45,509 nucleotides of DNA from assembly GCA_946566685.1 (NCBI GenBank), contig CAMNXA010000024.1, positions 1-45,509 of the forward strand. Reading direction: 5' to 3'. Each line of letters opens with the position of its first letter. Positions within the stretch are counted from its first letter, which is position 1. Positions 32,056-44,976 of the stretch are shown in pieces. Origin of the DNA: an uncultured Lachnospiraceae bacterium. GTDB taxonomy: Bacteria; Bacillota; Clostridia; Lachnospirales; Lachnospiraceae. Below the pieces are notes generated by a model. That model did no database searches and had not been told where the DNA came from. It saw only the letters and a program-made list of their open reading frames with translations. The translations under genes and the position numbers were made by a program.

Positions 32056-32313
32056 TTAGCATGTATGCTGATGCAGATATTTTTCTCTGGTTGCCAATCC
32101 TCCCCGGATATGCCGCTCAGATTTATTGACATCCAGGACTTTCCTTGCCTCGGCTGCAAGGGACGGATTGATCTGCGCAAGACGTTCGGTTACGTCTTTA
32201 TGTACCGTGGACTTACTAATCCCAAACTCTTTCGCCGTCTGCCGCACCGTAGCATTATTCTCAATGATATAATTGGCAATCTGAATTGCACGTTCCTCAA
32301 TATAATCTTTCAA
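32056..32313 (-). CDS. spoIIID: SpoIIID, mother-cell sporulation transcription factor (intact copy)
   Basis: 85 residues, full length. The helix-turn-helix is VRQTAKEFGISKSTVHKDVT, and the basic tail KSERHIRGGLATREKYL is characteristic of SpoIIID. It activates and represses mother-cell genes after sigma-E becomes active. It starts at TTG 32313, with GAGGGG seven bases before it. Codon 38/39 (His-Lys) is the exact point where the three other copies of the gene start in this window diverge: codons 1-38 and promoter belong to the repeated segment, codons 39-85 occur only here. The gene is therefore a chimera: host 3' part plus a 5' part brought by the adjacent cassette, if the integration model is right. 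Confidence 0.95.
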   Translation of the reverse strand: MKDYIEERAIQIANYIIENNATVRQTAKEFGISKSTVHKDVTERLAQINPSLAAEARKVLDVNKSERHIRGGLATREKYLHQHTC

Positions 32314-32371
32314 AAGGAAACCCCTCAGAACACTTTTTTACATTGTATGAAGCATTCCGAGAGGGTATGAC
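32199..32371 (-). repeat. spoIIID 5'-segment repeat, copy 1 (att-like site of module 1, gene-restoring)
   Basis: A 173-base segment running from the shared junction TATGTACCGTGG (32199-32210) to the -35 box of the spoIIID promoter (TCATA, about 32366-32370). The same segment recurs at 37290-37462, 40648-40820 and 44760-44931. Homology stops abruptly at both edges in every copy. To the left of the junction this copy continues into spoIIID codon 39; the other three continue into an unrelated common tail. This is the pattern of attL/attR sites. Confidence 0.85.
32342..32371 (-). promoter_or_regulatory. Sigma-E-type promoter of spoIIID
   Basis: On the minus strand GTCATACC (-35, about 32364-32371) and CATACAAT (-10, 32342-32349) match the sigma-E consensus of Bacillus/Clostridium sporulation, with about 14 bases between. 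The same two boxes are kept in all four repeat copies, each time ending exactly at the edge of homology. Confidence 0.8.
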
Positions 32372-32433
32372 TGATTATAAAACAAAGAAATTCAATTATA
32401 CTGTCTACTTGTAGAAATAAAAACCTTACACCA

Positions 32434-33150
32434 TTAGCGCTTAATATCTAATTTATCATTCTCTGTTATTTTCATAAATTTTGAAGAAATAAAGCCCAGC
32501 AAAACTACATCCCAAATCCTACACGCAAAGAAATCAACGATATACATTCTCACATTTGCATCAGACAAGTCCTCACTGATAGGATTAAGACAGTAACTTC
32601 TCTGTATTGTTACATAAACTCCTTTCCAAAACTGTTGTTCCGAAAGTGCAATCAAAAATTCATTACTTAGCACTGCATTGACACTAATCACTAAAATATA
32701 TAAAATAATAGCCCCAATAATCTGTCCAAACACAACTACATTTTTTAACGCCACCAAACCCATTAATAATGTTAGCAACAACCACACTTTAAATACACAA
32801 ACCAATTCTATCCGATGTATTTCCAATGCCGTAACAGCAAAAACAAAAGACACATAGCACCATACTATTATAACACCTGATTTTTTCCAGAAACACACTG
32901 ACAAATCAGTAATAATCAACATCGAATATAAATATCCCCAGAGCATTTCTATTATTATGATTACACAGTCTATTAATGACAATTCCACCGTTTGAGTATT
33001 AATATTAAATATAATTCCAAAGGTATATAATCCTAGCCATCCTAAAATGGCTTTTGCTTTATAAATCCCTTTTTCATCAATAAGTTCTTTTACAAATATA
33101 AATGCCATTGGTAACATAAAAAGCAAAAAAACAACTATTTTTTCTATCAT
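32434..33150 (-). CDS. Predicted multi-pass membrane protein of unknown function (module 1)
   Basis: About 238 residues from ATG 33150 (an upstream ATG at 33180 lacks a ribosome binding site). Around six or seven hydrophobic segments, e.g. IVVFLLFMLPMAFIFV, VIIVWCYVSFVFAVTALEI and VVVFGQIIGAIILYILVIS; charged cytoplasmic tail at the end. I do not recognise the family. It follows the DUF6414-like gene by 43 bases on the same strand and is probably the last gene of the ATPase-TOPRIM operon. Membrane partners are frequent effectors in anti-phage systems, so a role as effector is possible but unproven. Strongly AT-rich. Confidence 0.6.
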   Translation of the reverse strand: MIEKIVVFLLFMLPMAFIFVKELIDEKGIYKAKAILGWLGLYTFGIIFNINTQTVELSLIDCVIIIIEMLWGYLYSMLIITDLSVCFWKKSGVIIVWCYVSFVFAVTALEIHRIELVCVFKVWLLLTLLMGLVALKNVVVFGQIIGAIILYILVISVNAVLSNEFLIALSEQQFWKGVYVTIQRSYCLNPISEDLSDANVRMYIVDFFACRIWDVVLLGFISSKFMKITENDKLDIKR

Positions 33151-33193
33151 TATATTCTCTTTCGTAAATCCACAACACATGCTATTTTACAAT

Positions 33194-34008
33194 CTATTGA
33201 TAAACTGCTATTGGAATAACTATCAATAAAGGTCCCTTAACAATATCTCTTACAGCATCCGGATTTTCCATATTTTTAGGTAAATTTCTTCTCTGTTTTC
33301 TATTTAGTTGCAAATTTTTAACATCTTCAAACATTTCATCCAGTTTAATGCTTTCTCCCTTAGGAACTTTCCTCAATACTTTACACAACATATATGACTG
33401 CCCAACAAAATTATCATGGGAACATCTAAAGTAGCTCTCATCCAAATACGCAACTAACGGAAACTTCCCATCTTCAAAATCAAATACGCATGATATTTCT
33501 TTTCCTGAACGTAATTGTCCTATTGTCGAAAAACCATTTATAGCTTCTTGTGTTTTACGATCAAGAAGTTGCTGATCCGCAATTCCCTGAATAGCAGACG
33601 CAAGTTCTCCCAACTTTATAACACTATCAGTCAGCTCTTTCATTTTGGAAAATCTCGCTGTTACCAAAACCTCTAAAAAATCATCTCTATGTAACTTCAA
33701 AAAATTTCTTCTGATAAAAATTCGTAATACTTTACTTGCTCATCCTCGTCTCCTGATTGTAAATACGTAAATACTTTGTCAAATTTACTAGCATCACTTA
33801 TTTTTACAGAACGTTTCACTTCCTCGTCCATTTTGTGCACTTTATTTCCTTTTCCAGTAATAATTTTTATATCAGCCTTACCTACAACTTCATTTTCGGA
33901 ACTATTTATTATTGCTCGAGATTCTTCATCATAGACATACCCATCAATTGCAGACAAATAATCCTCAATTATTCTTGTATTTAAATATAAGAAATTTCTT
34001 AATTTCAT
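33194..34008 (-). pseudogene. DUF6414-like protein split by a one-base frameshift in a T-run
   Basis: Two overlapping reading frames: 34008-33697 (103 residues, starts MKLRNFLYLNTRIIEDYLSA) and 33700-33194 (168 residues, starts LKLHRDDFLEVLVTARF). The first ends EEIF-stop at a run of six T (minus strand, near 33699-33704); one extra T would fuse both into a protein of about 271 residues. Together they look like the DUF6414 family, whose proteins begin with a similar xFxYLNTxxxxxYLSxIDG pattern. Whether this is a disabling mutation, a phase-variable tract or a sequencing error cannot be told. The first ATG overlaps the stop of the RloB-like gene (ATGA), so translation is coupled. Family assignment is moderate and function unknown. 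Confidence 0.55.
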
Positions 34009-34718
34009 CTTTTATCTTCCTCCGCAAAATATTGTCTTGTATTTTTAGGCAAGTACCTCGCCAATTCCTCAGCTAACTTATACACCTTCGTTCCCGGCAC
34101 AATATCTGCCGGCATCTTACCCTTATTTTCCTCTATAATCCGTTTCGCATACCGTATCGCCAATTTAGGACTACCCTTCTCCATCAGAACATCAAATATA
34201 TCCCTCCTATTCTTCTGATACTTTCCAACCCCAAGTTCTGTGAACTTATCATTCAAAAATTTAACATACTCAGATCTATGATTGTTTGAAGTATAGTAAG
34301 CAAAATGCAAAATAAACCAAAACTCAATGCATTCATTGCTCCACGCCTCATGATATTGTAATTCCTGATTCTCCAAATTTAGCTTTTCCACCCGCTCTGA
34401 CACACCATTAAAATCTTTTGCCGGAAAGCTGTCCTTATCATACACACACCAAATCTGTCCTCTGTCAATCCTATTTTTATGGACATATCGTTCCGCCATA
34501 CCAATGACCTGCATGGTCTCCGCGGCGCAAGGTTCAATTTCAATCAGAACCATATCCTTATAAATCGGATTATTCTCTATCAAACGTTTAAATCCTTCAA
34601 AATATAGCGGTTCCGTTTGCTCACCCTCACAAAAGATATAATAGCGGTATTCCTTTTTCTCCAGATATTCTTTGCGCCGCTGTTTCCTCCACTGAGACGT
34701 TCCGACTTTTTTAGGCAT
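34005..34718 (-). CDS. RloB-like (AbiLii-type) TOPRIM-family protein
   Basis: About 237 residues from ATG 34718 (MPKKVGTSQWRKQRR), with GGAGTGAGG just upstream; an ATG nine bases earlier is less likely. The TOPRIM-like core is visible: YYIFCEGEQTEPLYFEGF with the conserved Glu, and IWCVYDKDSFP with the Asp-x-Asp. C-terminal part ECIEFWFILHFAYYT fits the RloB family. In AbiL-type systems this protein is the nuclease-like effector paired with an SMC-like ATPase. Its start overlaps the ATPase gene stop by eight bases, indicating a two-gene functional unit. Confidence 0.85.
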   Translation of the reverse strand: MPKKVGTSQWRKQRRKEYLEKKEYRYYIFCEGEQTEPLYFEGFKRLIENNPIYKDMVLIEIEPCAAETMQVIGMAERYVHKNRIDRGQIWCVYDKDSFPAKDFNGVSERVEKLNLENQELQYHEAWSNECIEFWFILHFAYYTSNNHRSEYVKFLNDKFTELGVGKYQKNRRDIFDVLMEKGSPKLAIRYAKRIIEENKGKMPADIVPGTKVYKLAEELARYLPKNTRQYFAEEDKR

Positions 34719-35937
34719 TGACCTCACTCCAATCTATAATCTTTTTCAGATATGGATCTGCGCCATACTTGCCCTCTAAATACTGCTTATCATATTTCGC
34801 ATCCATGCGGACGGATTCCCCTTTTGTATTTTTAAACTCAACCAGCGAATAAAGTTTAGAATTTTGATCCTTTCCCTTTGCCACAAACCAGATCTCATCC
34901 CGGCGGAATATATCATTATTCATAGTTGACAGATCATGCGAAGTAAAGATTAACTGTGCGCCGTTCTTGTTAATCTCCATATTATTATACAGCATGACTA
35001 CGTACCGTAGCAATACCGGGTGAATTTTTGCATCCAGTTCATCGATGACTAATGTCGTTCCTGCGACAAGACTTTTCGCAATAAAAGGTAGTAATCCAAA
35101 CAATTTTTTTGTTCCGCTAGATTCCTCTGACAAAGTCAATTCCGTACTATATCCATTTACAATATGCCTGGTATAAACTTCTATATGGTTTTCATCTTTT
35201 TCCTCAATGCGAAAATCCGCAATATCTAAATCCATCTCACGGATCATATCGAGCACAATTTTTTTTACCTCGTCTGTCTTAGCTATTGCTGTTCGCAGCT
35301 CCTGTCTTGGATTTCCGTAATTTAAAAAATCAATAGAATCCTCAAACCACTGGATCACATCAGAAATAACCTCGTTCTTCTTATAAGTTATCCCAAGATA
35401 AGACAGCAACGGCAAGTTTTCTGAGATTTCCTCACTAATTTTGATTTTTCCAAAAACCCCTTTTAAATCTACCTCATTATCATTTCTAACAAAAAGCGCC
35501 GACCGCCTCCCGGTGTCTAACTTGATTCGATCCAGACTCTCGTATGCAACAATATCTTGTCTCACATGGAGAATATAGCGGTACTCTGCCACATTAGTCC
35601 TAAAGAACACTTCAAACTGTGTCGGCTCTTTTCTTGTCTCTTCCGAAAAAGCAAAGGGCTCCACCGGAATCTTTCTGGCTTTAAACTCACACTCCGATTT
35701 ATCACAAGTCGCACAAAGAGGTCTTAATATCTTTGCATCCAGTGTATGCAAAGCCTCCAGCACATTCGATTTACCACCGCCATTCGGTCCATAGATAACG
35801 GATACCGGCAAAAACTTTTCTCCGTCCTTCGTTTGAATGATTCTATCCTTATGCTCCATAATTGCCGCAGCCTGCATATCGAAAGTCATCTCTTCACGGA
35901 TACTTTTATAATTTTTTACGGTAAATTGGCATAACAT
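34711..35937 (-). CDS. RloA-like (AbiLi-type) AAA/SMC-like ATPase
   Basis: 408 residues. Walker A is YGPNGGGKSNVLEAL (about 49-63), an ABC-like signature is LSEESSGTKKLFGLLPF (about 285), and Walker B is TTLVIDELDAKIHP (about 315). The four-residue CDKC pair CATCDKSEC near residue 80 could bind zinc. The family includes RloA/AbiLi and OLD-like ATPases that sense phage infection and license a nuclease partner, here the RloB-like protein. First gene of a minus-strand operon continuing into the DUF6414-like and membrane genes. The start ATG 35937 follows GATGGAGG. Confidence 0.87.
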   Translation of the reverse strand: MLCQFTVKNYKSIREEMTFDMQAAAIMEHKDRIIQTKDGEKFLPVSVIYGPNGGGKSNVLEALHTLDAKILRPLCATCDKSECEFKARKIPVEPFAFSEETRKEPTQFEVFFRTNVAEYRYILHVRQDIVAYESLDRIKLDTGRRSALFVRNDNEVDLKGVFGKIKISEEISENLPLLSYLGITYKKNEVISDVIQWFEDSIDFLNYGNPRQELRTAIAKTDEVKKIVLDMIREMDLDIADFRIEEKDENHIEVYTRHIVNGYSTELTLSEESSGTKKLFGLLPFIAKSLVAGTTLVIDELDAKIHPVLLRYVVMLYNNMEINKNGAQLIFTSHDLSTMNNDIFRRDEIWFVAKGKDQNSKLYSLVEFKNTKGESVRMDAKYDKQYLEGKYGADPYLKKIIDWSEVNA

Positions 35938-35964
35938 AGTCTTTTACCTCCATCTTATTTCTAT

Positions 35965-35992
35965 ATTATACACGATTCTTGCGATTTGTAAA
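35965..35992 (-). promoter_or_regulatory. Promoter of the AbiL-like operon
   Basis: Minus-strand TTTACA (35987-35992), 16-base spacer, TATAAT (35965-35970), about 28 bases before the ATPase start codon. Confidence 0.55.
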
Positions 35993-36506
35993 CAATATTT
36001 GAGATTTTTTCTCATATTTATAACTTTATTGTATCGAAGTAAAATTTATCACTAAATTCTTTAAACTCTTGACCCAATTAAAATATTAGAATAAAGTAAG
36101 GAAATAAATAATAACTGAGTATTCCAATTCAAAAGTGCATGTTTTTCGGAAATTCAGAGCAGTTAAATTTAGTCAAGCAAATATTTGCTTTTGGTGTATT
36201 AAGGGTATCTGAAAGCCAAACTTTTGTAAAGGATGCTTACGCACTGCAAAGCTGCTCTGTCCTTGACAAAAGCCCTCCTTCCAAATGCAAAATAGTCAAC
36301 CTAAAAACGAAAATGCCTGCTCACAAATATTGGATTTTGATGTTCCGAAGATGCAGAAAGAGTGCACTATTAGAACGGAATATCCAATAATTTTACTCTT
36401 CCACAAAAAACAATTTCTTTATACCAAAAAGCACTCATATCATCTAATCCGTTTAATGCACTAAATGATATAATTTTAACATTTTAAGTATTAAGGAGAA
36501 ATACAT
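35993..36506. other. Non-coding stretch of module 1
   Basis: About 510 bases, AT-rich, without a convincing gene. A short open frame at 36139-36390 has neither ribosome binding site nor recognisable motifs. I see no tRNA, riboswitch or recombination site. The last ~20 bases hold AAGGAG, the ribosome binding site of the next gene. Confidence 0.4.
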
Positions 36507-37079
36507 ATGATAAATACAATTATAACAATCTTTATTCTCGTTATTCTTTGTGGCGTTGGTTTATGTATATGGGATTATTTATCTAATTTAACTATACAAG
36601 AGGAAAGAAAAAAGGTAGAAACAGAAAAAGCCGAAAAGGCACGAATGGAATTCCCCCCAATTGAAGATTGGATTTCTCATCCCTTATATAAAGCAACAAT
36701 ATCATTTTTAACAGAAAAAATAGATTATTTTATTCAATGTGCGAAAGAAACTGTTGCTACGAGGAATGGAATTTTCTCAATTGGAATAGAGATAAAACCT
36801 AACGGAGCATATTTATTTTCCAATATTCAAAACTATACCTTTTATTTTTCCAGCATAGGATATGATAATATTAAAGTAGGATATTATGAAGAAGAGTCAA
36901 ATCAAGCATGTAGAGACCTTGCAGCAGAATTAGTAATATACTTGAGAAAATATTACCAAAAGGAAAATATAAATATAAGTGACGTCAATTATTTCATTGA
37001 TCCCGAGGGATATTTTGCTTCATCAATCAAATTCTGGATTGATCTTAGCAATCTTATGTCCAGATTAAAACAAGTTTAA
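36507..37079 (+). CDS. Hypothetical protein with N-terminal membrane anchor (module 1)
   Basis: 190 residues. One N-terminal membrane helix (about 3-24, TIITIFILVILCGVGLCIWDYL), then a charged Glu/Lys coiled stretch (about 30-47) and a soluble domain of ~140 residues with no motif I recognise. The only plus-strand cargo gene among the cassettes. ATTAAGGAG lies nine bases before ATG 36507. High AT content agrees with recent acquisition. Function unknown. Its stop is directly followed by ACATTGTATGAA, the same 11-12 bases found at the sigma-E -10 region of each spoIIID copy. Confidence 0.6.
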   Translation: MINTIITIFILVILCGVGLCIWDYLSNLTIQEERKKVETEKAEKARMEFPPIEDWISHPLYKATISFLTEKIDYFIQCAKETVATRNGIFSIGIEIKPNGAYLFSNIQNYTFYFSSIGYDNIKVGYYEEESNQACRDLAAELVIYLRKYYQKENINISDVNYFIDPEGYFASSIKFWIDLSNLMSRLKQV

Positions 37080-37272
37080 CATTGTATGAATTAATCCTAT
37101 ATAAATTTCTGGTGTTAGCAAGTGCATTGGTAACTGTAATTCGCAATCCACCATCCAGTATGTATACGGTGTGTAATTGGAAACTTTGTGTACCAACACC
37201 TTTACAAACTAACGCTAAACCTCTTCCTTCTCAATATCTTTTCGTCTCACATTACAGCCCAAACAAACCGTT

Positions 37273-37404
37273 CTATTTTGTTACTACCGTATGTACCGTG
37301 GACTTACTAATCCCAAACTCCTTCGCCGTCTGCCGCACCGTAGCATTATTCTCAATGATATAATTGGCAATCTGAATTGCACGTTCCTCAATATAATCTT
37401 TCAA
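37273..37404 (-). pseudogene. spoIIID: Truncated spoIIID 5' fragment, copy 2 (43-codon reading frame)
   Basis: Begins at TTG 37404 with the same GAGGGG site as the intact gene and reads MKDYIEERAIQIANYI... up to SKSTVH, then TVVTK and a TAG stop in the common tail. It keeps the first helices of the helix-turn-helix but loses the basic tail. The sigma-E promoter upstream is intact, so a 43-residue peptide could be made in the mother cell. Best seen as the by-product of site-specific insertion. Confidence 0.85.
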
Positions 37405-37462
37405 AAGGAAACCCCTCAGAACACTTTTTTACATTGTATGAGGGGTTGGGAGGGGTTATGAC
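37290..37462 (-). repeat. spoIIID 5'-segment repeat, copy 2 (att-like site between modules 1 and 2)
   Basis: From TATGTACCGTGG (37290-37301) to the -35 box (TCATAA on the minus strand, about 37456-37461). It is nearly identical to copy 1 in the coding part but has the promoter-flank type found in copy 4. Left of the junction is the common tail ACCGTTCTATTTTGTTACTA (37269-37287 region), shared with copies 3 and 4. The -10 box CATACAAT is at 37433-37440. Confidence 0.85.
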
Positions 37463-37644
37463 CATTTGTTAGTTCAAAGATTGTTCTTAGCCAGAGACCC
37501 ATAATCAAAATTTGTGGGCTGGGATGTTAATAAATCATCATAAAGGCATTTCCGAAATCACCTGGATACTATTCTCGATTCTTTTTAATATGCTCCCGCA
37601 AACCATCCCTCCTCATTGCCCATATATTACAGAACACTGTCAAC

Positions 37645-38157
37645 TTAATTCCGTTTGCCAACCTCTTCCGCATATACCATAAACGTCCTGTCATCGAACA
37701 GCACCCACTCGACCAGATCGATCACATTGGGAAACTGCTCCAGAAACCGGCAGACTGCCCCAACTGCTTCCTTCGCCGCTTTCTCTACTGGATAACCGTA
37801 AATCCCTGTTGAAATTGACGGAAAGGCCACCGTGCGAATTCCATTCTCCATCGCAACCTTTAAAGAATTATAATAGCAGGAGGCGAGTTTTTCCGGCTCA
37901 CCGTTTGAACCTCCATGCCAGACAGGCCCGACCGTATGGATCACATAATCGCATGGTAAATGATAAGCCTTTGTCAGTTTTGCTTCCCCTGTTGGGCAGC
38001 CATGAAGCATCCGGCACTCTTCTAAAAGCTGCGGCCCTGCCGCCCTGTGGATTGCTCCATCCACACCACCTCCTCCGAGCAGGCTCGTGTTCGCCGCATT
38101 GACGATTGCCTGCACATCCGTATTTTTTGTAATGTCTCCTTTTACTGTCTTTAACAT
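37645..38157 (-). CDS. Macrodomain protein, ADP-ribose hydrolase / O-acetyl-ADP-ribose deacetylase type
   Basis: 170 residues, one complete MacroD/YmdB-type domain. [20 protein letters not shown] is the adenosine-site start, [14 protein letters not shown] the catalytic loop, and [17 protein letters not shown] the second loop. Such proteins remove ADP-ribose from Asp/Glu or hydrolyse O-acetyl-ADP-ribose. Last cargo gene of module 2. The neighbouring module 3 carries an ADP-ribosyltransferase-like protein and a NADAR protein, so ADP-ribose chemistry recurs in the array. ATG 38157 has a weak site upstream. GC higher than in module 1. Confidence 0.9.
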
Positions 38158-38179
38158 GTTTTCGTCCTCCCACTTTCAA

Positions 38180-38400
38180 CTAATTGATTTAGATATCCGC
38201 CTCGTAAAGCATCCTTATCAGCTATCTCTCTTGGTAGAATTTTCTTCCCTTGATCGGGTTCAAATAAATCCGTATTTTTTTGTTTCGGCCGTCCTATGAT
38301 AAGAAATCCCCGCCTTGTCCAGCAGGGATTTCAGATACTGATTTTCTTTATCCAAATTTTCAATTTTATAATCAATCTTTTCTACTATAAAATACCTTTA
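38180..38400 (-). pseudogene. Relic of the N-terminus of a TOTE-type helicase/primase protein
   Basis: Not an intact gene. Reading the minus strand from 38397, one frame gives a coiled-coil segment ENLDKENQYLKSLLDKAGIS ending at a TGA; after a one-base shift the next frame reads LFEPDQGKKILPREIADKDA. This pair strongly recalls the start of large TOTE conflict-system proteins (coiled coil, then PDQGxxIxPxEI). No start codon and no downstream domains remain. The assignment is from memory of family motifs and is only moderate. It lies between HD and macrodomain genes, as debris inside module 2. Confidence 0.42.
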
Positions 38401-38417
38401 TCCAGCATCATATCCTC

Positions 38418-38879
38418 TCACATCCCAAACTCAGCACACAGCTTATCAAAGCGTGCCTGCTCTTTTTCTTTGACAGGTTTCGATAAATCATTCATGCAGT
38501 GATGTATGACGTCCGCATCCTTCAAAACCTCATCCATCGGGCTATCCACCACCAGCTTGTCATCATGATGATATATCGCAGAACAGATGATATCCGTCTC
38601 GTTTTCATCCGTCAGTTTCAATTCTCTGAGAATATCCCCTGCAAGTGCCGCTCCCTTGTGCGCATGGTCATCATAAGACCCGGTCTTATAGGCATGCAGG
38701 TCATGGAGCATCGCCGCCATCGAAGAAAGTTCCGGATCAAGCCCCCGCTTCTTCGCAATCATCGTGGCTGCAAGAGATACGCCGTAAAGGTGTGCAATTG
38801 CACTGTTTTGTTTACTGACATCTTCCATCTTATTTAATTCGCCATCCACATACTTCCGAAGTTCTTTCAATCTGCTCAT
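38418..38879 (-). CDS. HD-domain metal-dependent phosphohydrolase
   Basis: 153 residues. HD superfamily pattern: His in IAHLYGVSLAA, then AAMLHDLHAYKTG (His-Asp), SAIYHHDDKL, and the distal Asp in LKDADVIHH. Small stand-alone HD proteins hydrolyse nucleotides or phosphodiesters. Its ATG is directly adjacent to the stop of the AAA/PD-(D/E)XK gene (TAGATG, no gap), so the two are co-translated; a functional pair is likely. Confidence 0.82.
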   Translation of the reverse strand: MSRLKELRKYVDGELNKMEDVSKQNSAIAHLYGVSLAATMIAKKRGLDPELSSMAAMLHDLHAYKTGSYDDHAHKGAALAGDILRELKLTDENETDIICSAIYHHDDKLVVDSPMDEVLKDADVIHHCMNDLSKPVKEKEQARFDKLCAEFGM

Positions 38880-40460
38880 CTATTCCCTGTATTCCTCTAT
38901 CTTACAATAATGTTTTCTTTTCCCTGCCGGGGCCTCCCTGTCATAGCTGATCCCCACCAGCAGAATATCACTTCCATAACTCTGAAACGCCGCCGGATAC
39001 CGCCTGTCCCTGATCTGTTCCAGAGCGCTTTCTGCCGACTGATTCCACTTCAATTCGATAATCAATACCGGCAACACGGAATCCCGCTTCGGCAGATAGA
39101 CAATATCCGCATATCCGACACCTGCCGGCAGTTCTTCAAGCATGACATACTCATCTCCATAGCTGAAATAGGCCCGTTTAATCACACTGCGCAGTGCCTG
39201 TTCATTGTTGTAATACAACGGCGATTCTTCTTCATGAATCTTCTCTATCTGACTGGCCACCGCCTCTTCGTTCTGGTGCACGGTATCCATGATAAGCTGC
39301 TCGCTCTCCCGCACCCGCCAGATGGTCTCATCCCGCTTTACCTGTCGTATTGCCCTTGCAAATTCCAAACGAATTTCTTCATTAGGAATACGAACCGTCT
39401 GTGTTTCTTCATCATAGACCAGATAACCCAGGTGGATCAGCAGTGTCAGCACATCGTTCCTGTCCCGAAATGTCACCAGATCGTTGGCAAAACCTTTTGT
39501 ATCCACTTTTGTTTCAGCTCCACCGATTAACTCCGCCACCGTCTTGCTAAGTCCGTCAAAATCAAGGCTGATATATTCCATGAGGCTCTCCGCGGCAGAT
39601 GTCTGCGTCCAGTAGGAATCGAAATCATCGTTGCGGATTGCTTTCATAACCGAATTGGGGTTATAAACAGCCGACAACTCCCGAAAAAAATATCCGTCAT
39701 ACCAACGTTTCATTTTTTCAAAGTCACTGCCATAGTCATGGCACAGCCTCTTTACCTCGTCTTCCGTGAATCCCACATATTTCGCAAACTGTCTGGGCTT
39801 GAGCATAGAATACTCCTGGAAATCCGATATCGCCGACTGGGAACCATCCTTTTTAATGGGCAGGATGCCGGTCATGTACACTGCCGCAAAAATTTTATCT
39901 GTCATCCCGCTGTTTTTAAATAAAGCACGCAAAAATTCCAGATATTTTCTCTGTAGATCGGGGCGCCCTTTCGCCTCCCTGATCGGCGCATCCCACTCAT
40001 CGATGATCATAATAAATTTATTACCCACCACTGCCGCCGCATTGGCAAGAGTTGCCGCAAATCCTTCCGCCGTCCTTAACCCCGGATACTGTTCCACCAG
40101 TTCCTGTATCACATTCCTCTGGATATATGGTATCATATCCTCAATAGATGTTTCTCCAATTACCCCTGTCATATCCAGATAAATCACATCATACAGATTT
40201 AAATAATCCCGAAATCCTACATCCCCGGCAATCTCCAGACCCTCAAAAAGCCCGGATGAATCACAAGTCTTATCGTAATAAGCACATAACATTTTAGCAG
40301 CAAAAGATTTCCCGAAACGGCGGGGTCTGCTGACGCAGGTCATACACCTTGGCGTATCAATCGTCTCATTAATCAGACCAATCAGCCCCGACTTGTCAAC
40401 ATAAATATCATTCCTGATTCTAGCGAACCCACCGTTGCCGGGGTTTAAATAATTTCCCAT
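38880..40460 (-). CDS. AAA-ATPase-like protein with C-terminal PD-(D/E)XK nuclease domain
   Basis: 526 residues of the common Firmicute/Bacteroidetes family AAA-ATPase_like + PDDEXK. Walker A in SRPRRFGKSFAAKMLCAYYD (about 45-60), Walker B FIMIIDEWDAPIREAK (about 150), and a C-terminal nuclease core DIVYLPKRDSVLPVLIIELK (Asp, then Glu-x-Lys) near residue 470. Function is not established; it is often found in defence or mobile loci. First gene of module 2, with GGAGGAACG before ATG 40460 and the cassette-end promoter 40 bases upstream. Confidence 0.87.
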   Translation of the reverse strand: MGNYLNPGNGGFARIRNDIYVDKSGLIGLINETIDTPRCMTCVSRPRRFGKSFAAKMLCAYYDKTCDSSGLFEGLEIAGDVGFRDYLNLYDVIYLDMTGVIGETSIEDMIPYIQRNVIQELVEQYPGLRTAEGFAATLANAAAVVGNKFIMIIDEWDAPIREAKGRPDLQRKYLEFLRALFKNSGMTDKIFAAVYMTGILPIKKDGSQSAISDFQEYSMLKPRQFAKYVGFTEDEVKRLCHDYGSDFEKMKRWYDGYFFRELSAVYNPNSVMKAIRNDDFDSYWTQTSAAESLMEYISLDFDGLSKTVAELIGGAETKVDTKGFANDLVTFRDRNDVLTLLIHLGYLVYDEETQTVRIPNEEIRLEFARAIRQVKRDETIWRVRESEQLIMDTVHQNEEAVASQIEKIHEEESPLYYNNEQALRSVIKRAYFSYGDEYVMLEELPAGVGYADIVYLPKRDSVLPVLIIELKWNQSAESALEQIRDRRYPAAFQSYGSDILLVGISYDREAPAGKRKHYCKIEEYRE

Positions 40461-40499
40461 CGTTCCTCCATAAATTTTAATGTTGATTTCTTAATTACC

Positions 40500-40648
40500 C
40501 ATTATACCCTCACCGATACTATTTCTCAATCCAATATTTCAAAAAGGCATTTGGAAGTCCCATAGCAGTTCCTCCAAATGCCCTATTCTCCGTTACTTCA
40601 CGGCCCACATCACTTTATTCCGAAACCGTTCTATTGTGTTACTACCGT
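40500..40648 (-). repeat. Conserved cassette right end, module 2, with promoter
   Basis: Homologous over about 140 bases to 44623-44760 at the end of module 3, though cargo differs. Shared parts: CATTATACCCTCACC (40500), an AT-rich spacer, a hairpin with arms CATTTGGA (40548-40555) and TCCAAATG (40572-40579), and the AACCGTTCTATT...CTACCGTA tail at the att junction. It carries a minus-strand promoter TTGAGA (40524-40529), 17 bases, TATAAT (40501-40506) that drives the cargo operon. Confidence 0.72.
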
Positions 40649-40762
40649 ATGTACCGTGGACTTCGAAATCCCAAACTCCTTCGCCGTCTGCCGCACCGTG
40701 GCATTATTTTCAATAATATAATTGGCAATGTTCATCGCACGCTCTTCGATATAATCCTTCAA
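40631..40762 (-). pseudogene. spoIIID: Truncated spoIIID 5' fragment, copy 3 (43-codon reading frame)
   Basis: TTG 40762 to TAG 40631. Reads MKDYIEERAMNIANYI... to SKSTVH then TVVTQ-stop. It is the most diverged copy: many synonymous changes plus Gln-Ile to Met-Asn-type changes around residues 10-12. That level of synonymous difference from the other copies suggests it was picked up from a different host lineage. Confidence 0.83.
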
Positions 40763-40820
40763 GAGAAAACCCCTCAGAATACTTTTTTACATTGTATGAA
40801 GTATTCTGAGGGGGTATGAC
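40648..40820 (-). repeat. spoIIID 5'-segment repeat, copy 3 (att-like site between modules 2 and 3)
   Basis: From TATGTACCGTGG (40648-40659) to the -35 box (TCATAC, about 40814-40819); -10 CATACAAT at 40791-40798. In this copy the -10 is framed by a perfect 15-base inverted repeat, CCCCTCAGAATACTT (40770-40784) and AAGTATTCTGAGGGG (40799-40813). Confidence 0.85.
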
Positions 40821-40823
40821 TGT

Positions 40824-42134
40824 TTATGTGGCGGTACTTTGCCTGGCAGTTATAAATTTCTTAACCTCTTCATATTTTTCGGTATCACAATCTTCCCGTA
40901 AAAGTCTGCACAACTCCCCAAGCCACTCTTCAGTCAAGTAATGAATACTGCATTCTTGATCGTATTCAGTAAATGATGGAATCTGCTCTTCTTCCATTCT
41001 TTCCCTGCACCTTTGAAACGCAAGGTACAAATACTCCTTCGCCCTCTTCTCCTCCTCTTTTATATTCCTCTTCCAAATTAATCCCGGCCGGTTCATCAAA
41101 GCAAGATAAAGAATTTTATCCGTTTCTATACTTGCTTCATCATAATAGTCTGCGAGATAAATTCTGCCCTCAACTTTTACCTTACCTGTATACGGATATC
41201 TTTTGAGCCATTTATTGCGTTCTTCCGGATTTTCTATCAGATCTATAGCCGCCTTCGGCTTATTCAGGCAGCAAAATTTATATTTCTTACCACTCCCACA
41301 GGGACAAGGATCATTTCGACCAATTTTCTTTTTGTGCACAGGCTGGTCTTCTTCTCTTTCCAACATACGTATCACTTTTTCAAAATCCTTTTCCTTGGGC
41401 ACATTCTCCTCTGTTTCAGAAAACATTGCCCAATGCCGCAAGGCCTCTATAGCGCAAAAAGAATTCTCACAAAATCTTTCCTCATTCTCACGATATTCAA
41501 ACATAGCGTCCACATAAGAATCATATTTGCCCATGCACATTTCGTCTATCAAATCCTGATCAATCAGATACCGGATTTCCGGCAACATATCCACAAAATG
41601 GCATTTACACAGCACATATGCTATTGCATTATAAACATAATCATATTCCCTTCCATTATACACGCTTTGTTTTAAAAAGTCTCTCCACTCATTTTCCTCC
41701 AAAACACCATCCAGATACAATTGTCCCATTACGTCAAGCATCGCCGTTCTTACAAATTCATTGATATCTCTGTCTTGAATTGATTTTTTCAGTAGCGCAA
41801 TATTACCATCATATGTATTGTACAATATATCTTTCAGTTCTGTTGTGATACAATCTCCAAGCAGATACTCAGCTATACCATCCGGCTGAGAAACAAGATC
41901 TATAATCTTTGAAAAAGATTCTCTATCCCGAAACTCTCCCAATAAATATAACGTATAAAAATGAAGTTGATAATTCACATCCAACATTTTCCCTTTACTA
42001 ATCGCATAATCAATAGCTTCCCGCAAATATGGAATTGCCTCCTCCTTATTTTCCGCAATTACCCGGAACGCTGCTTTTGGAAGAGACTCACTTAAATATT
42101 TTACTTCCTCAATCGCCTTTTGTACTTCACTCAT
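40824..42134 (-). CDS. DUF1186-like protein with SEC-C zinc motif
   Basis: 436 residues. The first ~250 residues are all-helical and HEAT-like (EVQKAIEEVKYLSESLPKAA, LHFYTLYLLGEFRD), resembling DUF1186. A SEC-C motif follows at about 285-305: IGRNDPCPCGSGKKYKFCC, with the Cys-x-Cys and Cys-Cys zinc ligands complete. About 130 further residues end in a helical region. SEC-C motifs mediate protein contacts (SecA, tRNA-modifying or defence proteins); the role here is unknown. It lies directly beside copy 3 and is the last gene of module 3. Confidence 0.8.
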   Translation of the reverse strand: MSEVQKAIEEVKYLSESLPKAAFRVIAENKEEAIPYLREAIDYAISKGKMLDVNYQLHFYTLYLLGEFRDRESFSKIIDLVSQPDGIAEYLLGDCITTELKDILYNTYDGNIALLKKSIQDRDINEFVRTAMLDVMGQLYLDGVLEENEWRDFLKQSVYNGREYDYVYNAIAYVLCKCHFVDMLPEIRYLIDQDLIDEMCMGKYDSYVDAMFEYRENEERFCENSFCAIEALRHWAMFSETEENVPKEKDFEKVIRMLEREEDQPVHKKKIGRNDPCPCGSGKKYKFCCLNKPKAAIDLIENPEERNKWLKRYPYTGKVKVEGRIYLADYYDEASIETDKILYLALMNRPGLIWKRNIKEEEKRAKEYLYLAFQRCRERMEEEQIPSFTEYDQECSIHYLTEEWLGELCRLLREDCDTEKYEEVKKFITARQSTAT

Positions 42135-42217
42135 ATCGTCTTTCTTCCATCCCTTTCAATCATTTTAAACCTTTTTGAACAATTGGATTAGCACTTCAGC
42201 ACCCTCATTTTCACTCC

Positions 42218-42694
42218 TCATATGCAAGGTGTCTTAAACGAAAGTACCGTCTCTTCTTCGTTCAAATGATGCTCTTCCGGACCATAAGGAGCAACCACAG
42301 TATTCCATAACTTCTTTGCCCCGATGTTTTTCTCGTTATACTTGATTTCCCACTTTCCCGGATGCTTATCCAAGATCATTTTCACTATATCAAGAGCAAA
42401 ATGTTTCCTCCGGAATGCCGGAAATATCGTAAACTCTGCCATTGTATAGTCTGGATTCTGATCAATATTTGAGTATGGACAGAGCATTGCAAAACCTGTC
42501 AGGACATCATCATTGTAAATAAAATACGCCTTTCTCTTCAAATCCGTGAAATAATCATCAAAATATCCGTAATGATAATTCCCGTTTTCATCCATTGGAT
42601 CGTCATAGAAGCTTGTCATCTCATACAGATATTTCTGATTAATATTCCAGAGCAGATCTCTGTCCTTTGGCTGTACGGCCTGTAATCTTAACAT
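42218..42694 (-). CDS. GNAT-family N-acetyltransferase
   Basis: 158 residues with the GNAT fold: AYFIYNDDVLTGFAMLCPYS (strands 2-4), AEFTIFPAFRRKHFALDIVK (acetyl-CoA loop; the Q/R-x-x-G-x-A motif is altered to RRKHFA) and WEIKYNEKNIGAKKLWNTV near the end. Transfers an acetyl group to a small molecule or protein; substrate unknown. GGAGGGAGG precedes ATG 42694. Single-gene spacing from the kinase relic and SEC-C gene. Confidence 0.83.
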   Translation of the reverse strand: MLRLQAVQPKDRDLLWNINQKYLYEMTSFYDDPMDENGNYHYGYFDDYFTDLKRKAYFIYNDDVLTGFAMLCPYSNIDQNPDYTMAEFTIFPAFRRKHFALDIVKMILDKHPGKWEIKYNEKNIGAKKLWNTVVAPYGPEEHHLNEEETVLSFKTPCI

Positions 42695-42717
42695 TTGCCT
42701 CCCTCCAAATATTCATA

Positions 42718-42974
42718 TTATTTCTTTAATTTCAGCAATCTTTCCACAATCTCCAATGTTTCCATAACCGTTCTGTTATCATCATGCAGCAAAACTTGAA
42801 AACCCAAGTGGAGAAACCTGTCATATCTATCTTTGGGATATCAAGTTTTTCATCCACCATACTGTCATGATAATTTTCCTCACATGCAATACCATCATAT
42901 TTCTCAGCAAGAAGCTTCACCATTGTGGATTTTCCGGCATAAGCAGTTCCGATTATGTAATATACATCATCCAT
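42718..42974 (-). pseudogene. P-loop kinase relic with internal deletion and frameshift
   Basis: The N-terminus is MDDVYYIIGTAYAGKSTMVK (P-loop GTAYAGKST) and continues through KYDGIACEENYHDSMVDEK. The open frame then drifts into unrelated residues and stops at 42732. In the next frame the true C-terminus of this kinase family follows: LGFQVLLHDDNRTVMETLEI and VERLLKLKK, stop at 42718. About 100 residues of the middle are gone, judged against the ~200-residue family. Non-functional. The start is likely ATG 42974. Confidence 0.7.
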
Positions 42975-43007
42975 CTGCATTTTCTCCAAATACTTGCCTT
43001 CTTCATA

Positions 43008-43484
43008 TCACAGCCTGTCCCGCGCCACCATCAGGGCATATCCCAGCAGATTTTGCCCCTTCCGCTTCATCCGGTCAAACCTGTCCGGGTCGTTCATTGA
43101 CAATCCGATACCCCATATGCGGTCTTTTACGGCGCACTCCGCTAAAACAGCACTTTCTGTAGCCATAAGCTGTACTTTCAGCTTATCATTCTGCGAAAAC
43201 TTTGCAAGTAATCCCTCATAAACAATAAGCTGACGCACGCCGTTCCAATGGTTCTCATCATATCCTGATACATGTCGTCCCAAATCCTTAATGCGGCCAG
43301 CATCGTCCGTTTCAAGAATTTTATTAGCTATATTATTGTCATGAAAACAAATCGCTTTGCGGTACATCACAAACTGTTCCATAGATGAAAAAACTATCCC
43401 ATCCATTTTGAAAGGGGATGGATACCAATTGCTCAGATAACCGTACTCCTCATCCGGATTGTGAAAACAAATGATATGATTCAT
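43008..43484 (-). CDS. NADAR-domain protein (YbiA-like)
   Basis: 158 residues, a complete NADAR domain: YLSNWYPSPFKMDGIVFSSM with EQFVMYRKAICF, then IKDLGRHVSGYDENHWNGVR, KFSQNDKLKVQLMATESAVL, and the end DRIWGIGLSMNDP with GQNLLGYALM. NADAR proteins hydrolyse N-glycosidic bonds in riboflavin intermediates or, in recent work, remove ADP-ribose from guanine in DNA as antitoxins of DarT-like enzymes. ATG 43484 overlaps the previous gene's stop (ATGA), and a DUF3990 ADP-ribosyltransferase-like gene leads the operon, so a reversal/antitoxin role is the best inference. Confidence 0.9.
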   Translation of the reverse strand: MNHIICFHNPDEEYGYLSNWYPSPFKMDGIVFSSMEQFVMYRKAICFHDNNIANKILETDDAGRIKDLGRHVSGYDENHWNGVRQLIVYEGLLAKFSQNDKLKVQLMATESAVLAECAVKDRIWGIGLSMNDPDRFDRMKRKGQNLLGYALMVARDRL

Positions 43485-43897
43485 GCGATCCCTACTTTCC
43501 TTACCGCAAGCTCCAATTCCAGATCATGCAGCCCGGCGTACGCCTTTTTCAAATATGCAAGCGGCACTTTTTCGATAACCTCAACACTCGGAATGCTGTA
43601 CTGCCATTGATAGTAGGCATAAAATTCGCCTATCCAATCAGGCATAAATCCGCCCAACGCTGTCCCTTTTTTCAGTTCATATCGGTCCGTATGCAGAAAA
43701 TACTCCCACAAAGTCTGAGCATCCATCGTACAGACATACGCCTGTGCTTCGTCCACATATTTCCTTGTATTGCTTTTCATATAGGAACAAATAAAATCCT
43801 CCGTATCCATATCGGGATAGGTTACCGCCACATAGTCGAACAGTTTTCCCTGATTCTCAATTATCTCATCCAAATATGCTTTGGAATAGGCTCCCAT
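43481..43897 (-). CDS. Conserved protein of unknown function between DUF3990 and NADAR genes
   Basis: About 138 residues from ATG 43897 (GAGGTG upstream; a GTG three codons earlier is also possible). Acidic, mostly helical, with aromatic clusters: GAYSKAYLDEIIENQGKLFD, FMPDWIGEFYAYYQWQY, and a C-terminal LKKAYAGLHDLELELAVRK. I recognise it as a protein often found beside DUF3990 genes but know no name. 17 bases after the ADP-ribosyltransferase gene stop and four-base overlap with NADAR. It could be a neutralising partner or adaptor. No signal peptide or membrane segment. Confidence 0.75.
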   Translation of the reverse strand: MGAYSKAYLDEIIENQGKLFDYVAVTYPDMDTEDFICSYMKSNTRKYVDEAQAYVCTMDAQTLWEYFLHTDRYELKKGTALGGFMPDWIGEFYAYYQWQYSIPSVEVIEKVPLAYLKKAYAGLHDLELELAVRKVGIA

Positions 43898-43914
43898 ATT
43901 GCTCACCTCACTTT

Positions 43915-44562
43915 TCAGAGTAATGTACTGAACACCTTAGTTACACGGTTCCGGTCTGAGTCAATTAGCTTTCGCATATTCTCCCGTGCCCATGTATCCC
44001 GTTGGTTGTACTTTTCATTAAACTCTGCAAATGCAACAGACTGCAATGCATCAAAATGCTCGGACAGTTTTTTATATGCCTGCTCCGTTTTGATGCAATA
44101 CTGAATACCTAATCCGCCGAGGGCTAGCAATTCCTCCAAGATGTCTATATCTACTTCATCGCGGACAAAAGACTTGGCGATATAAAAATATGATGCGTTA
44201 GCCCTCCACCCCTTGATCACATCATATTCATCCATCGATATTCCAAATTTTTCGATAAATTGTTTTGATAAGATGCGATATCGTTTGGAATCTGCCGCAT
44301 CACGATGCTTCATCAGCTCGGCCAGCCACGTTAACGCACTATGCTCTTGAAAATCCAGTATATTCAATCCTTCTGTATCCAGTTCAAATTCATGCACCCA
44401 GCCGTTTGAAGCGTTCGGACGGTAAACCGCCCATTCTTTCGCAAGTTCCAAACTTTCCGTAAGGTAAAACCCTTTTCCGTAATCGTGCTTTTCCTCCCCC
44501 AGTCTGAATTTCGGCGTTACCGTTTCATCCGGACTGCCATGATATAAAATAATCTTTCCCAC
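43915..44562 (-). CDS. DUF3990-family ADP-ribosyltransferase-like protein
   Basis: About 215 residues from GTG 44562, which has a perfect AGGAGG six bases upstream; an in-frame ATG further up (44652) is less supported. IILYHGSPDETVTPKFRLG (the H-G of ART folds), EKHDYGKGFYLTESLELAKE and WAVYRPNASNGWVHEFELD are the DUF3990 hallmarks. DUF3990 belongs to the ADP-ribosyltransferase fold group, so it probably moves ADP-ribose from NAD to an unknown target, likely as a toxin. First gene of a three-gene operon with an unknown protein and a NADAR domain. Driven by the conserved cassette-end promoter (TATAAT 44624-44629). Confidence 0.82.
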   Translation of the reverse strand: MGKIILYHGSPDETVTPKFRLGEEKHDYGKGFYLTESLELAKEWAVYRPNASNGWVHEFELDTEGLNILDFQEHSALTWLAELMKHRDAADSKRYRILSKQFIEKFGISMDEYDVIKGWRANASYFYIAKSFVRDEVDIDILEELLALGGLGIQYCIKTEQAYKKLSEHFDALQSVAFAEFNEKYNQRDTWARENMRKLIDSDRNRVTKVFSTLL

Positions 44563-44622
44563 GATACGCCTCCTGTCATACAAGCATCTTTTCAAATCCC
44601 TTGCCCATCGCTTATCTGTATT

Positions 44623-44760
44623 CATTATACCCTCACCCATATTATTCCACAATCACATATTACAAAAGGAGCCTTTAGAAGTTTCCTGCTGCACTCCTAA
44701 AGACCCCTATAATAAATTATCTTATTCGCCACACCAACCGTTCCATTTTGTTGCTACCAT
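44623..44760 (-). repeat. Conserved cassette right end, module 3, with promoter
   Basis: Counterpart of 40500-40648: CATTATACCCTCACC (44623-44637), AT-rich spacer, hairpin with arms CTTTAG (about 44670-44675) and CTAAAG (about 44696-44701), then CCAACCGTTCCATTTTGTTG and the junction. Minus-strand promoter TTGTGG (44647-44652), 17 bases, TATAAT (44624-44629), with GGTGAGGG directly before the -10 in both ends. Confidence 0.72.
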
Positions 44761-44874
44761 ATGTACCGTGGACTTCGAAATCCCAAACTCCTTCGCCGTC
44801 TGCCGCACCGTAGCATTATTCTGGGTGATATAATTGGCAATCTGAATTGCACGTTCCTCAATATAATCTTTCAA
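44722..44874 (-). pseudogene. spoIIID: Truncated spoIIID 5' fragment, copy 4 (50-codon reading frame)
   Basis: TTG 44874 to TAA 44722. Same start as the others up to SKSTVH, then a longer tail MVATKWNGWCGE because the TAG seen in copies 2 and 3 is TGG here. One coding difference (Ile-Glu to Thr-Gln near residues 17-18). Sigma-E promoter kept (-10 CATACAAT, 44903-44910). Confidence 0.83.
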
Positions 44875-44931
44875 AAGCAAACCCCTCAGAACACTTTTTT
44901 ACATTGTATGAGGGGTTGGGAGGGGTTATGA
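44760..44931 (-). repeat. spoIIID 5'-segment repeat, copy 4 (rightmost att-like site)
   Basis: From TATGTACCGTGG (44760-44771) to the -35 box TCATAA (about 44926-44931). If the insertion model is right, either this copy is the original host 5' end of spoIIID with its chromosomal upstream region, or a further module extends beyond the window. Its promoter flank is identical in type to copy 2. Confidence 0.83.
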
Positions 44932-44976
44932 TCTTATATTGAACAATATATTTTCTGCTTAACTTTTTAAGGATAA

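What the first reader, a model, noticed from the sequence alone, without database searches (positions are those of the whole stretch)
32199..44931. Array of integrase-less cassettes inserted serially at one codon of spoIIID
Four copies of a ~172-base segment (spoIIID codons 1-38 plus its sigma-E promoter) begin at the same junction, TATGTACCGTGG, and end at the same -35 box. Only the leftmost is joined to codons 39-85; the other three run into a common tail. Between them are three unrelated cargo modules of ~5.1, 3.4 and 4.1 kb, rich in defence or toxin-type genes, none with a recombinase. This is what repeated site-specific insertion into spoIIID would leave, with each newcomer re-supplying the 5' end and promoter so sporulation survives. 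The arrangement resembles a chromosomal cassette array with its integrase elsewhere. I know of no described element using spoIIID this way.
Basis: partly seen in the sequence, partly recalled or inferred. Interest (0 to 1): 0.93.

Follow-up and report, generated by a model that had tools for sequence, protein, structure and literature searches.

The report
Cargo cassettes in a sporulation gene
In a Lachnospiraceae bacterium, three cassettes carrying defence-type and other genes are stacked in the start of the sporulation gene spoIIID, each beginning with the end of a DNA-recombinase gene, and relatives carry elements with that recombinase that split spoIIID in two and are predicted to cut themselves out when the cell makes a spore.

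Summary
Four copies of the spoIIID promoter plus codons 1-38 sit at 32199, 37290, 40648 and 44760; only the first runs on into the gene. The array continues on the next contig with a fifth, damaged copy. The common "tail" is the last 15-19 codons of a large serine recombinase (LSR) gene (28 of 28 junctions). No near LSR was found in this genome. Elsewhere LSR relatives abut a spoIIID 3' half in 77 of 80 loci, mostly Lachnospiraceae and Oscillospiraceae. Of 24 such genomes, 0 have a whole spoIIID and 22 have just the two halves. Joining the ends in silico gives an open spoIIID in 22 of 22 elements. A small protein encoded with the LSR has a sporulation-type promoter box (50 of 57; 4.8 in shuffles) and is the likely directionality factor. 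Two hosts share parts of an element at 99%, its junction end at 93%, and the next genes at 73-74%, so it moves. Best reading: skin-like drivers in spoIIID with integrase-less passenger cassettes accreted beside them. Excision and hitch-hiking are predicted, not shown. I found no report of spoIIID as a target.

The parts
32056..32313 (-). intact spoIIID (85 aa); the B-B' (attB-like) site lies at 32199-32210
   Evidence: Pfam PF12116 E 3.1e-43; junction table
32199..32371 (-). copy A: sigma-E-like promoter plus spoIIID codons 1-38 (B half), joined to the spoIIID 3' part
   Evidence: alignment, upstream sequences
32199..37290 (-). cassette 1 (5091 bp): AbiL-type defence pair, DUF6414 in two ORFs, two ORFs without a Pfam match
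34005..34727 (-). RloB / AbiLii
   Evidence: Pfam RloB 1.7e-37; PADLOC AbiLii 1.5e-30
34711..35937 (-). AAA_21 ATPase / AbiLi
   Evidence: Pfam AAA_21 2.4e-28; PADLOC AbiLi 3.4e-83
33194..34008 (-). DUF6414 gene read in two overlapping ORFs (33194-33700 and 33697-34008), probably frameshifted
   Evidence: both parts match PF19952
37247..37294 (-). P' tail of cassette 1: 3' end of an LSR gene (TYGSNKIERFVWAVM*)
37290..37462 (-). copy B: promoter plus spoIIID codons 1-38, joined to the P' tail (B-P', attL-like)
37290..40648 (-). cassette 2 (3358 bp): macro domain, HD domain, AAA-ATPase_like with PDDEXK_9
38880..40460 (-). AAA-ATPase_like / PDDEXK_9 protein
   Evidence: Pfam PF09820 2.2e-28
40593..40652 (-). 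P' tail of cassette 2: LSR gene 3' end (TYGSNTIERFRNKVMWAVK*)
40648..40820 (-). copy C: promoter plus spoIIID codons 1-38, B-P' junction
40648..44760 (-). cassette 3 (4112 bp): DUF1186/SEC-C protein, NADAR and DUF3990 proteins (PDC-M42 components), three ORFs without a Pfam match
43008..43484 (-). NADAR protein, PDC-M42C
   Evidence: Pfam NADAR 1.1e-46; PADLOC PDC-M42C 6.9e-82
43915..44652 (-). DUF3990 protein, PDC-M42A
   Evidence: Pfam 9.5e-38; PADLOC PDC-M42A 2e-117
44717..44764 (-). P' tail of cassette 3: LSR gene 3' end (TYGSNKMERLVWRIR*)
44760..44932 (-). copy D: promoter plus spoIIID codons 1-38, B-P' junction; the array continues beyond it onto contig C2

Best explanation
The window holds three complete integrase-less cassettes lying in a row at codon 38 of spoIIID, each starting with the last 15-19 codons of a large serine recombinase (LSR) gene and ending with a copy of the spoIIID promoter and codons 1-38, and they are likely passengers of LSR-bearing elements that in relatives split spoIIID at that same codon and are predicted to be excised in the mother cell, which would rejoin the gene. 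Shown by sequence: in relatives the LSR gene abuts the spoIIID 3' half (P-B'), and the spoIIID 5' half runs into codons that fit the LSR's own end (B-P'), so the circular form's attP would lie inside the 3' end of the LSR gene and integration cuts that end off. Joining the two ends in silico gives an open spoIIID and, in most elements, an LSR with a longer C-terminus like that found uncut in viral contigs. Inferred: the LSR is made from a vegetative-type promoter, and a small companion protein with a sporulation-type promoter acts as directionality factor, so that excision happens in the mother cell and the spore keeps the element. Inferred: a cassette that brings its own spoIIID promoter and 5' end leaves the gene whole, so the next LSR element can insert below it; recombination between an upstream B-P' and the driver's P-B' could then carry cassettes along as a composite circle. 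How a cassette first gained its 5' end is not known; duplication of the locus followed by loss of the LSR is my guess.
For: Junctions: four in the window; the B-P' pattern with up to 2 mismatches in 16 of 77 same-genus genomes and, with a looser pattern, in 24 of 397 same-family genomes from 23 of 334 genera, with 0 hits of the reversed control. Tails: 28 of 28 B-P' junctions found by pattern in the genus loci stay open as TY(G/S)xN... to a stop after 15 or 19 codons (the pattern itself fixes part of the first codons). LSR next to the spoIIID 3' half: 77 of 80 loci. Split gene as the only copy: of 24 genomes, 0 with a full-length match, 22 with one 5' and one 3' part, 20 of these on the same contig and strand, 5-35 kb apart. 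In-silico excision: SpoIIID open in 22 of 22; LSR extended through P' in 19 of 22. Uncut LSR ending TYRSNKIERLIWRIK in viral contigs L172-L174 (identical ends) and AYSSNNLERFIWLIS in L171. Companion small protein within 2.5 kb upstream in 45 of 75, not found in the window or in the genus loci without the LSR; CATA box upstream in 50 of 57 against a mean of 4.8 in shuffles; the LSR lacks a sigma-E-like promoter (2 of 79 against 2.8). Mobility: G009 and G044 share element parts at 99.2% and 99.0% (2.8 and 2.4 kb), other parts at 92-93%, next genes downstream at 74.3% and 72.8%; a cassette start is 99% identical in G009, G044 and G043 whose guaA region is 73-81% identical. G044 shows cassette and driver side by side: B-P', cassette, B-P', LSR element, P-B'. 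Cargo strand: 51 of 61 ORFs follow spoIIID. Precedent: in C. difficile skin the LSR is sigma-A dependent and a 72-aa directionality factor is sigma-E/SpoIIID dependent (PMC5025042, passages).
Against: No excision, circle or transfer was observed. No near LSR in the window's genome at E 1e-150 (18 of 20 candidates scored, genome about 95% complete), so its cassettes may be stranded. Only 4 of 77 same-genus genomes carry the LSR, fewer than carry junctions. The origin of the re-supplied 5' end is unexplained; in G072 the repeated block is 814 bp and includes an upstream gene, which fits duplication better than a fixed cassette end. The directionality factor is a guess from neighbourhood and promoter: 30 of 75 loci lack the motif within 2.5 kb, and Pfam and PHROGs gave only weak matches (best E 0.024 and 0.01). 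The promoter sequences are related to one another, so the shuffles overstate the contrast. My stricter sigma-E motif found only 11 of 20 spoIIID promoters and 13 of 57 of the small genes (0.9 in shuffles); the 50 of 57 uses a looser box chosen after looking. 3 of 22 elements do not extend the LSR as described (L111, L152, and L123 with only four extra residues), and L102 and L162 fit loosely. Cassette and LSR counts come from related genomes and are not independent. It is not known that these species sporulate.
Confidence: 0.74

Rival explanations
1. The cassettes are stranded remains of LSR elements that now move only by homologous recombination between the 172-bp spoIIID 5' repeats; no LSR has acted on them since they lost it.
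For: No near LSR found in the window's genome; repeats up to 95% identical over 173 bp within the array; the outermost copy on C2 has a damaged core; G072 repeats 814 bp at 98.5%.
Against: The core is intact in 4 of 4 window junctions; a cassette sits directly above an LSR element in G044; the same cassette start is 99% identical between distant hosts. Homologous transfer through the repeats is not excluded by any of this.
Confidence: 0.35
2. In relatives the LSR elements simply inactivate spoIIID for good in lineages that no longer sporulate; there is no developmental excision.
For: Sporulation of these species was not examined; no excision data; 29 of 77 same-genus genomes have no spoIIID match at all, some of them incomplete.
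Against: Both halves stay open and rejoin in frame in 22 of 22; no full-length copy in 24 of 24; sporulation-type box on the companion gene.
Confidence: 0.13
3. The four copies arose by tandem duplication of one block, with later divergence of the interiors.
For: Longer repeats occur (814 bp in G072); cassettes 2 and 3 share some sequence beside the junction.
Against: The three interiors carry different genes; the break is at the recombinase core each time; every tail is an LSR gene end.
Confidence: 0.03
4. An integron-like or tyrosine-recombinase cassette system at spoIIID.
For: Array of unlike cassettes, 51 of 61 ORFs on one strand; one tyrosine recombinase among the 61.
Against: The gene that abuts the spoIIID 3' half in 77 of 80 relatives is a serine recombinase; tails are the end of that gene.
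Confidence: 0.02

Closest known systems
Sporulation gene-intervening elements (skin in sigK, SPbeta in spsM, vfbin, vrin, gin in gerE, yin in yabG)
   Same: Serine recombinase element splits a mother-cell sporulation gene; small partner protein with a sporulation-type promoter; excision would rejoin the gene. gin in gerE, unlike the prophage-like ones, has no phage genes (PMC5595907, passages).
   Different: The target is spoIIID, which the passages I read do not name as a target; attP would lie inside the LSR gene's 3' end; at least 77 loci; integrase-less cassettes that restore the gene stand beside it. If the directionality factor needed SpoIIID, as in C. difficile, the switch would deadlock, so a SpoIIID-independent promoter is expected.
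CIMEs and tandem accretion of ICEs/IMEs (PMC5704250, passages)
   Same: Elements that lost integrase but keep att junctions, stacked at one site, and able to move with an integrase-bearing neighbour.
   Different: CIMEs as defined there keep attL and attR; here each cassette shows only the B-P' type and ends in a fresh spoIIID promoter and 5' end; serine recombinase; sporulation gene as target.
SCC / pseudo-SCC arrays at rlmH (recalled; search listing only)
   Same: Large serine recombinase (best NCBIfam models CcrB, CcrC, XisF, all far below cut-off), tandem elements, some without recombinase.
   Different: SCC leaves rlmH whole and has no developmental excision (recalled); the LSR here is below every Ccr cut-off.
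Chromosomal integron cassette arrays (recalled)
   Same: Strings of unlike cassettes, mostly in one orientation.
   Different: The junctions are LSR att sites; no integron integrase or attC was seen.

Membership tests
sporulation gene-intervening element (skin type), for the LSR elements of relatives | Interrupts a sporulation gene with both halves in the same orientation | tested here: met
   22 of 24 genomes with both halves, 20 on the same contig and strand
sporulation gene-intervening element (skin type), for the LSR elements of relatives | Encodes a site-specific recombinase at its end | tested here: met
   77 of 80 loci; Resolvase, Recombinase and Zn_ribbon_recom domains in P0001
sporulation gene-intervening element (skin type), for the LSR elements of relatives | Precise joining restores the reading frame | tested here: met
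   22 of 22 in silico
sporulation gene-intervening element (skin type), for the LSR elements of relatives | Excised during sporulation in the mother cell | not testable with these tools
   Only indirect: sporulation-type box upstream of the companion gene
sporulation gene-intervening element (skin type), for the window's cassettes | Encodes its own recombinase | tested here: not met
   None in 15 cargo ORFs and no near LSR found in the genome
CIME / accreted element | No integrase but flanked by att junctions of a related integrase | tested here: met
   B-P' junctions of the same kind as those of LSR elements
CIME / accreted element | Keeps both attL and attR | tested here: not met
   No P-B' (attR) seen in the window; each right end is a spoIIID 5' copy
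CIME / accreted element | Mobilised with a neighbouring active element | not testable with these tools
   One genome (G044) has a cassette directly above an LSR element
integron | Cassette junctions are integron attC/attI sites | tested here: not met
   Junctions are LSR att sites; attC models were not run
SCC | ccr recombinase above NCBIfam cut-off | tested here: not met
   CcrB 155 and 152 bits against a cut-off of 900

The most novel reading that the evidence does not exclude
spoIIID is a clade-wide docking site at which a serine recombinase whose gene is cut by its own integration shuttles defence cassettes between gut Clostridia: drivers split the gene and are released only in the dying mother cell, while passengers that carry a spare spoIIID start stack up beside them, travel with them as composite circles, and have their cargo read from the stacked sporulation promoters.
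Probability: 0.35. Interest if true: 0.92.

Novelty: new variant of a known kind. Interest (0 to 1): 0.84.

Why it matters
It would add an early mother-cell regulator to the sporulation genes split by recombinase elements, in dozens of species rather than single strains. It would tie a developmental DNA rearrangement to the spread of defence genes, and it suggests a way by which integrase-less islands can grow at a site without killing sporulation. A recombinase that loses its own tail on integration is a testable switch, and the conserved small partner gives a family of candidate directionality factors. It also warns annotators that spoIIID may look broken in species that could still sporulate.

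Tried and rejected
Integron-like reading and tandem duplication: rejected on the junction and tail evidence. Sigma-E promoter upstream of the LSR gene: not found, 2 of 79 against 2.8 in shuffles. What stands there is GTAACAGAACG, 40 of 79 with at most one mismatch against 0.04 in shuffles; of the 56 with at most two mismatches, 44 have a -10-like hexamer (several spellings allowed, no control run) in the 20 bases before it. The motif matches the spoIIID half-site beside the core in some genomes (seen) and may be an LSR operator, but it also resembles the SpoIIID motif quoted in PMC5025042, so I leave it open. Strict sigma-E motif upstream of the small gene: 13 of 57; replaced by a looser box after looking at the sequences. 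Pfam and PHROGs on the small protein: weak matches only. No fold prediction and no search of the 5.8-billion protein set was run. First pattern search had one N too many and found nothing; repeated correctly.
Full report
1. What is in the window. Read in the sense of spoIIID (minus strand), the array is: sigma-E-like promoter and spoIIID codons 1-38, then a 12-base junction CCACGGTACATA, then a tail and a cargo module, repeated three times, and finally the promoter and codons 1-38 joined to the true rest of spoIIID. The copies are 84-92% identical to a reference copy over 212 nt and 88-95% in pairwise matches of 172-203 bp. Cassette 1 includes an AbiL-type pair (PADLOC AbiLi 3.4e-83, AbiLii 1.5e-30). 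Cassette 3 includes two parts of the candidate system PDC-M42 (2e-117 and 6.9e-82). Cassette 2 has macro, HD and AAA/PDDEXK proteins; the two of these given to one search had no PADLOC match. No recombinase was found among 15 cargo ORFs. The contig ends at 45509 and overlaps contig C2 by 55 identical bases; C2 carries a fifth 5' copy with a damaged core, and between them lies what looks by eye like an ECF sigma gene and a companion.

2. Relatives. The genus search covered 77 genomes including the window's. A junction pattern (2 mismatches) hits 16 of 77, at 21 places. SpoIIID (PF12116) matches 48 of 77 (the rest tallied by hand from its table): 40 have a full-length copy; 4 have a 3' part without a full copy (G044, G009 and G058 split; G008 an uninterrupted junction cut by the contig end); 4 have only a 5' part (G026, G030, G049, G069; G026 also has the LSR abutting a 3' part at a contig end). 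Of the 40, 12 have clear further 5' copies, 2 are doubtful (G012 degraded, G066), and 26 have none, the expected empty sites, although G003 among them has a junction by pattern. Cargo differs between arrays but pieces are shared: the first 2.1 kb of one cassette is 99% identical in G009, G044 and G043, and 1.65 kb of the window's AbiL module is 95% identical to a stretch of the G044 element, while the guaA region between these hosts is 72-81% identical.

3. The driver. In G044, G058 and G009 the spoIIID 3' half is preceded directly by a ~540-aa serine recombinase gene. A scan of one genome for each of 84,980 species found 109 relatives, of which the best 80 were kept. In 77 of these 80 a SpoIIID 3' part lies at the end of the LSR gene; the three without are L113, L132 and L135. 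Record titles name Lachnospiraceae, Blautia, Schaedlerella, Extibacter, Pseudoflavonifractor, Flavonifractor and Anaerotignum among others; a few MAG titles name other groups. I passed 24 of the 80 to a whole-genome SpoIIID search: none has a full-length copy, 22 have one 5' and one 3' part, one has only the 3' part (G090), one has none (G087). Where both are on one contig (20 of 22) they lie 5-35 kb apart. The LSR at E 1e-150 is in 4 of 77 same-genus genomes and was not found in the window's own.

4. The tail is the recombinase. In 28 of 28 B-P' junctions found by the pattern in the genus loci, the tail read in one frame is TYGSNKIER...* or a variant, ending after 15 or 19 codons. The pattern fixes part of the first codons, not the frame beyond; three more junctions (L082, L083, L084) fall outside it. 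In the 22 loci where both ends of an LSR element are held, joining the ends gives an open SpoIIID of 79-91 aa in 22 of 22 (L158 starts inside the gene at a contig end). The LSR continues over the core into this tail in 19 of 22, two of them loosely (L102, L162); L111 is frameshifted before it, L152 reads another frame and L123 adds four residues only. Four viral contigs carry relatives with no spoIIID match and end in the uncut tail; three of the four have identical ends, and their neighbours look phage-like by eye. So attP would lie in the LSR gene and integration truncates it; in most elements the stop codon is then made with spoIIID sequence.

5. Control. A small protein (KLNYRFHNPN family, 33 members aligned) lies within 2.5 kb upstream of the LSR in 45 of 75 loci with enough flank. 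In the window and 36 genus loci the motif was found only beside the LSR elements of G058, G044 and G009. In 50 of 57 such genes a box CATAn1-4AT stands 40-105 nt before the motif, against a mean of 4.8 (maximum 13) in 200 shuffles; many show, by eye, CTATTTT or TTAATAA some 15 bases before it. The LSR gene has no sigma-E-like box but often a vegetative-type -10. This is the arrangement shown for C. difficile skin, where the LSR is expressed from a sigma-A promoter and a 72-aa directionality factor is under sigma-E and SpoIIID (PMC5025042, passages). As SpoIIID itself is the split gene here, its directionality factor should not need SpoIIID; this is a prediction.

6. Mobility. Comparing G009 and G044 in spoIIID sense, parts of the element are 99.2% and 99.0% identical over 2.8 and 2.4 kb, its start 92.2% over 2.9 kb, the LSR with the spoIIID 3' half 93.1% over 2.2 kb, and the next genes downstream 74.3% and 72.8%. 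The identity falls beyond the junction, as expected after transfer. G044 has the order B-P', cassette, B-P', LSR element, P-B', so removal of the driver alone would leave the window's kind of array, and removal from the upper junction would take the cassette along. Neither event was seen.

7. Unexplained. How a cassette gained the promoter and 5' end is open. The homology starts near the -35 box in most copies, also between species, which selection on the promoter could explain. In G072 the repeated block is 814 bp and contains an upstream gene that looks by eye like an HTH regulator, pointing to duplication of the locus.

8. Cargo. In 17 LSR-less cassettes with both ends held, 51 of 61 ORFs of at least 110 aa lie on the spoIIID strand; some cassettes are near-copies of one another. 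PADLOC at 1e-10 matches 96 families among the 61 (25 shown), including PrimPol (4), PbeA (4), AbiLi (2), AbiLii (2), PDC-M42C (2), PDC-M42A, PsyrT, PsyrA, ZorD and DpdE (1 each); helicase families overlap, so this is not a count of systems. Pfam (49 families, 25 shown) gives TOTE primase (4), ParE (3), RloB (2) and one tyrosine recombinase.

9. Novelty. Listings of held papers gave none that describes spoIIID as a target: 20 of 114 listed; 25 of 2,139; 13 of 13; 15 of 188; 10 of 10. Passages of PMC4191935, PMC10747680, PMC5595907 and PMC6957869 and the abstracts name sigK, spsM, spoVFB, spoVR, gerE, yabG and kamA. Subscription papers are mostly not held. I therefore file the LSR elements as a new variant of sporulation gene-intervening elements, and the window's array as an accreted, integrase-less derivative that works like, but is not strictly, a CIME array.

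Noticed in passing
L171-L174 (viral contigs): Phage-like contigs carry the same LSR family and small companion protein with the uncut C-terminus and no spoIIID match: possible free form or donors of the recombination unit.
   Followed up: partly
L132, L135, L113: LSR relatives not beside a spoIIID 3' part; L132 lies in a Christensenella genome without any SpoIIID match. Other targets are possible.
   Followed up: partly
window 32199-32371 and the other 5' copies: The spoIIID promoter block in many genus members contains an inverted repeat (AACCCCTCAGAACACTT ... AAGTGTTCTGAGGGGTT) around the -10 box; it is imperfect in the window's copies. Seen by eye.
   Followed up: no
upstream of LSR genes, L091-L170: GTAACAGAACG a little before the LSR start codon matches the spoIIID half-site beside the core in some genomes: possible self-repression, or a SpoIIID site.
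   Followed up: partly
window 37290, 40648, 44760 (B-P' junctions): The truncated spoIIID copies keep the HTH part and gain a new end (VHTVVTK, VHTVVTQ, VHMVATKWNGWCGE). A possible effect on SpoIIID is untested.
   Followed up: no
L076:10369-11289 (+): A 306-aa tyrosine recombinase-type gene inside the large G072 element between the two 5' copies.
   Followed up: no
window 33194-34008 (-): DUF6414 gene split over two frames, probably a pseudogene.
   Followed up: no
cassettes in L026, L027, L033, L034: Primase proteins of the TOTE conflict type recur in the cargo (4 of 61 ORFs); the assignment to these four loci is inferred from shared cargo DNA.
   Followed up: no
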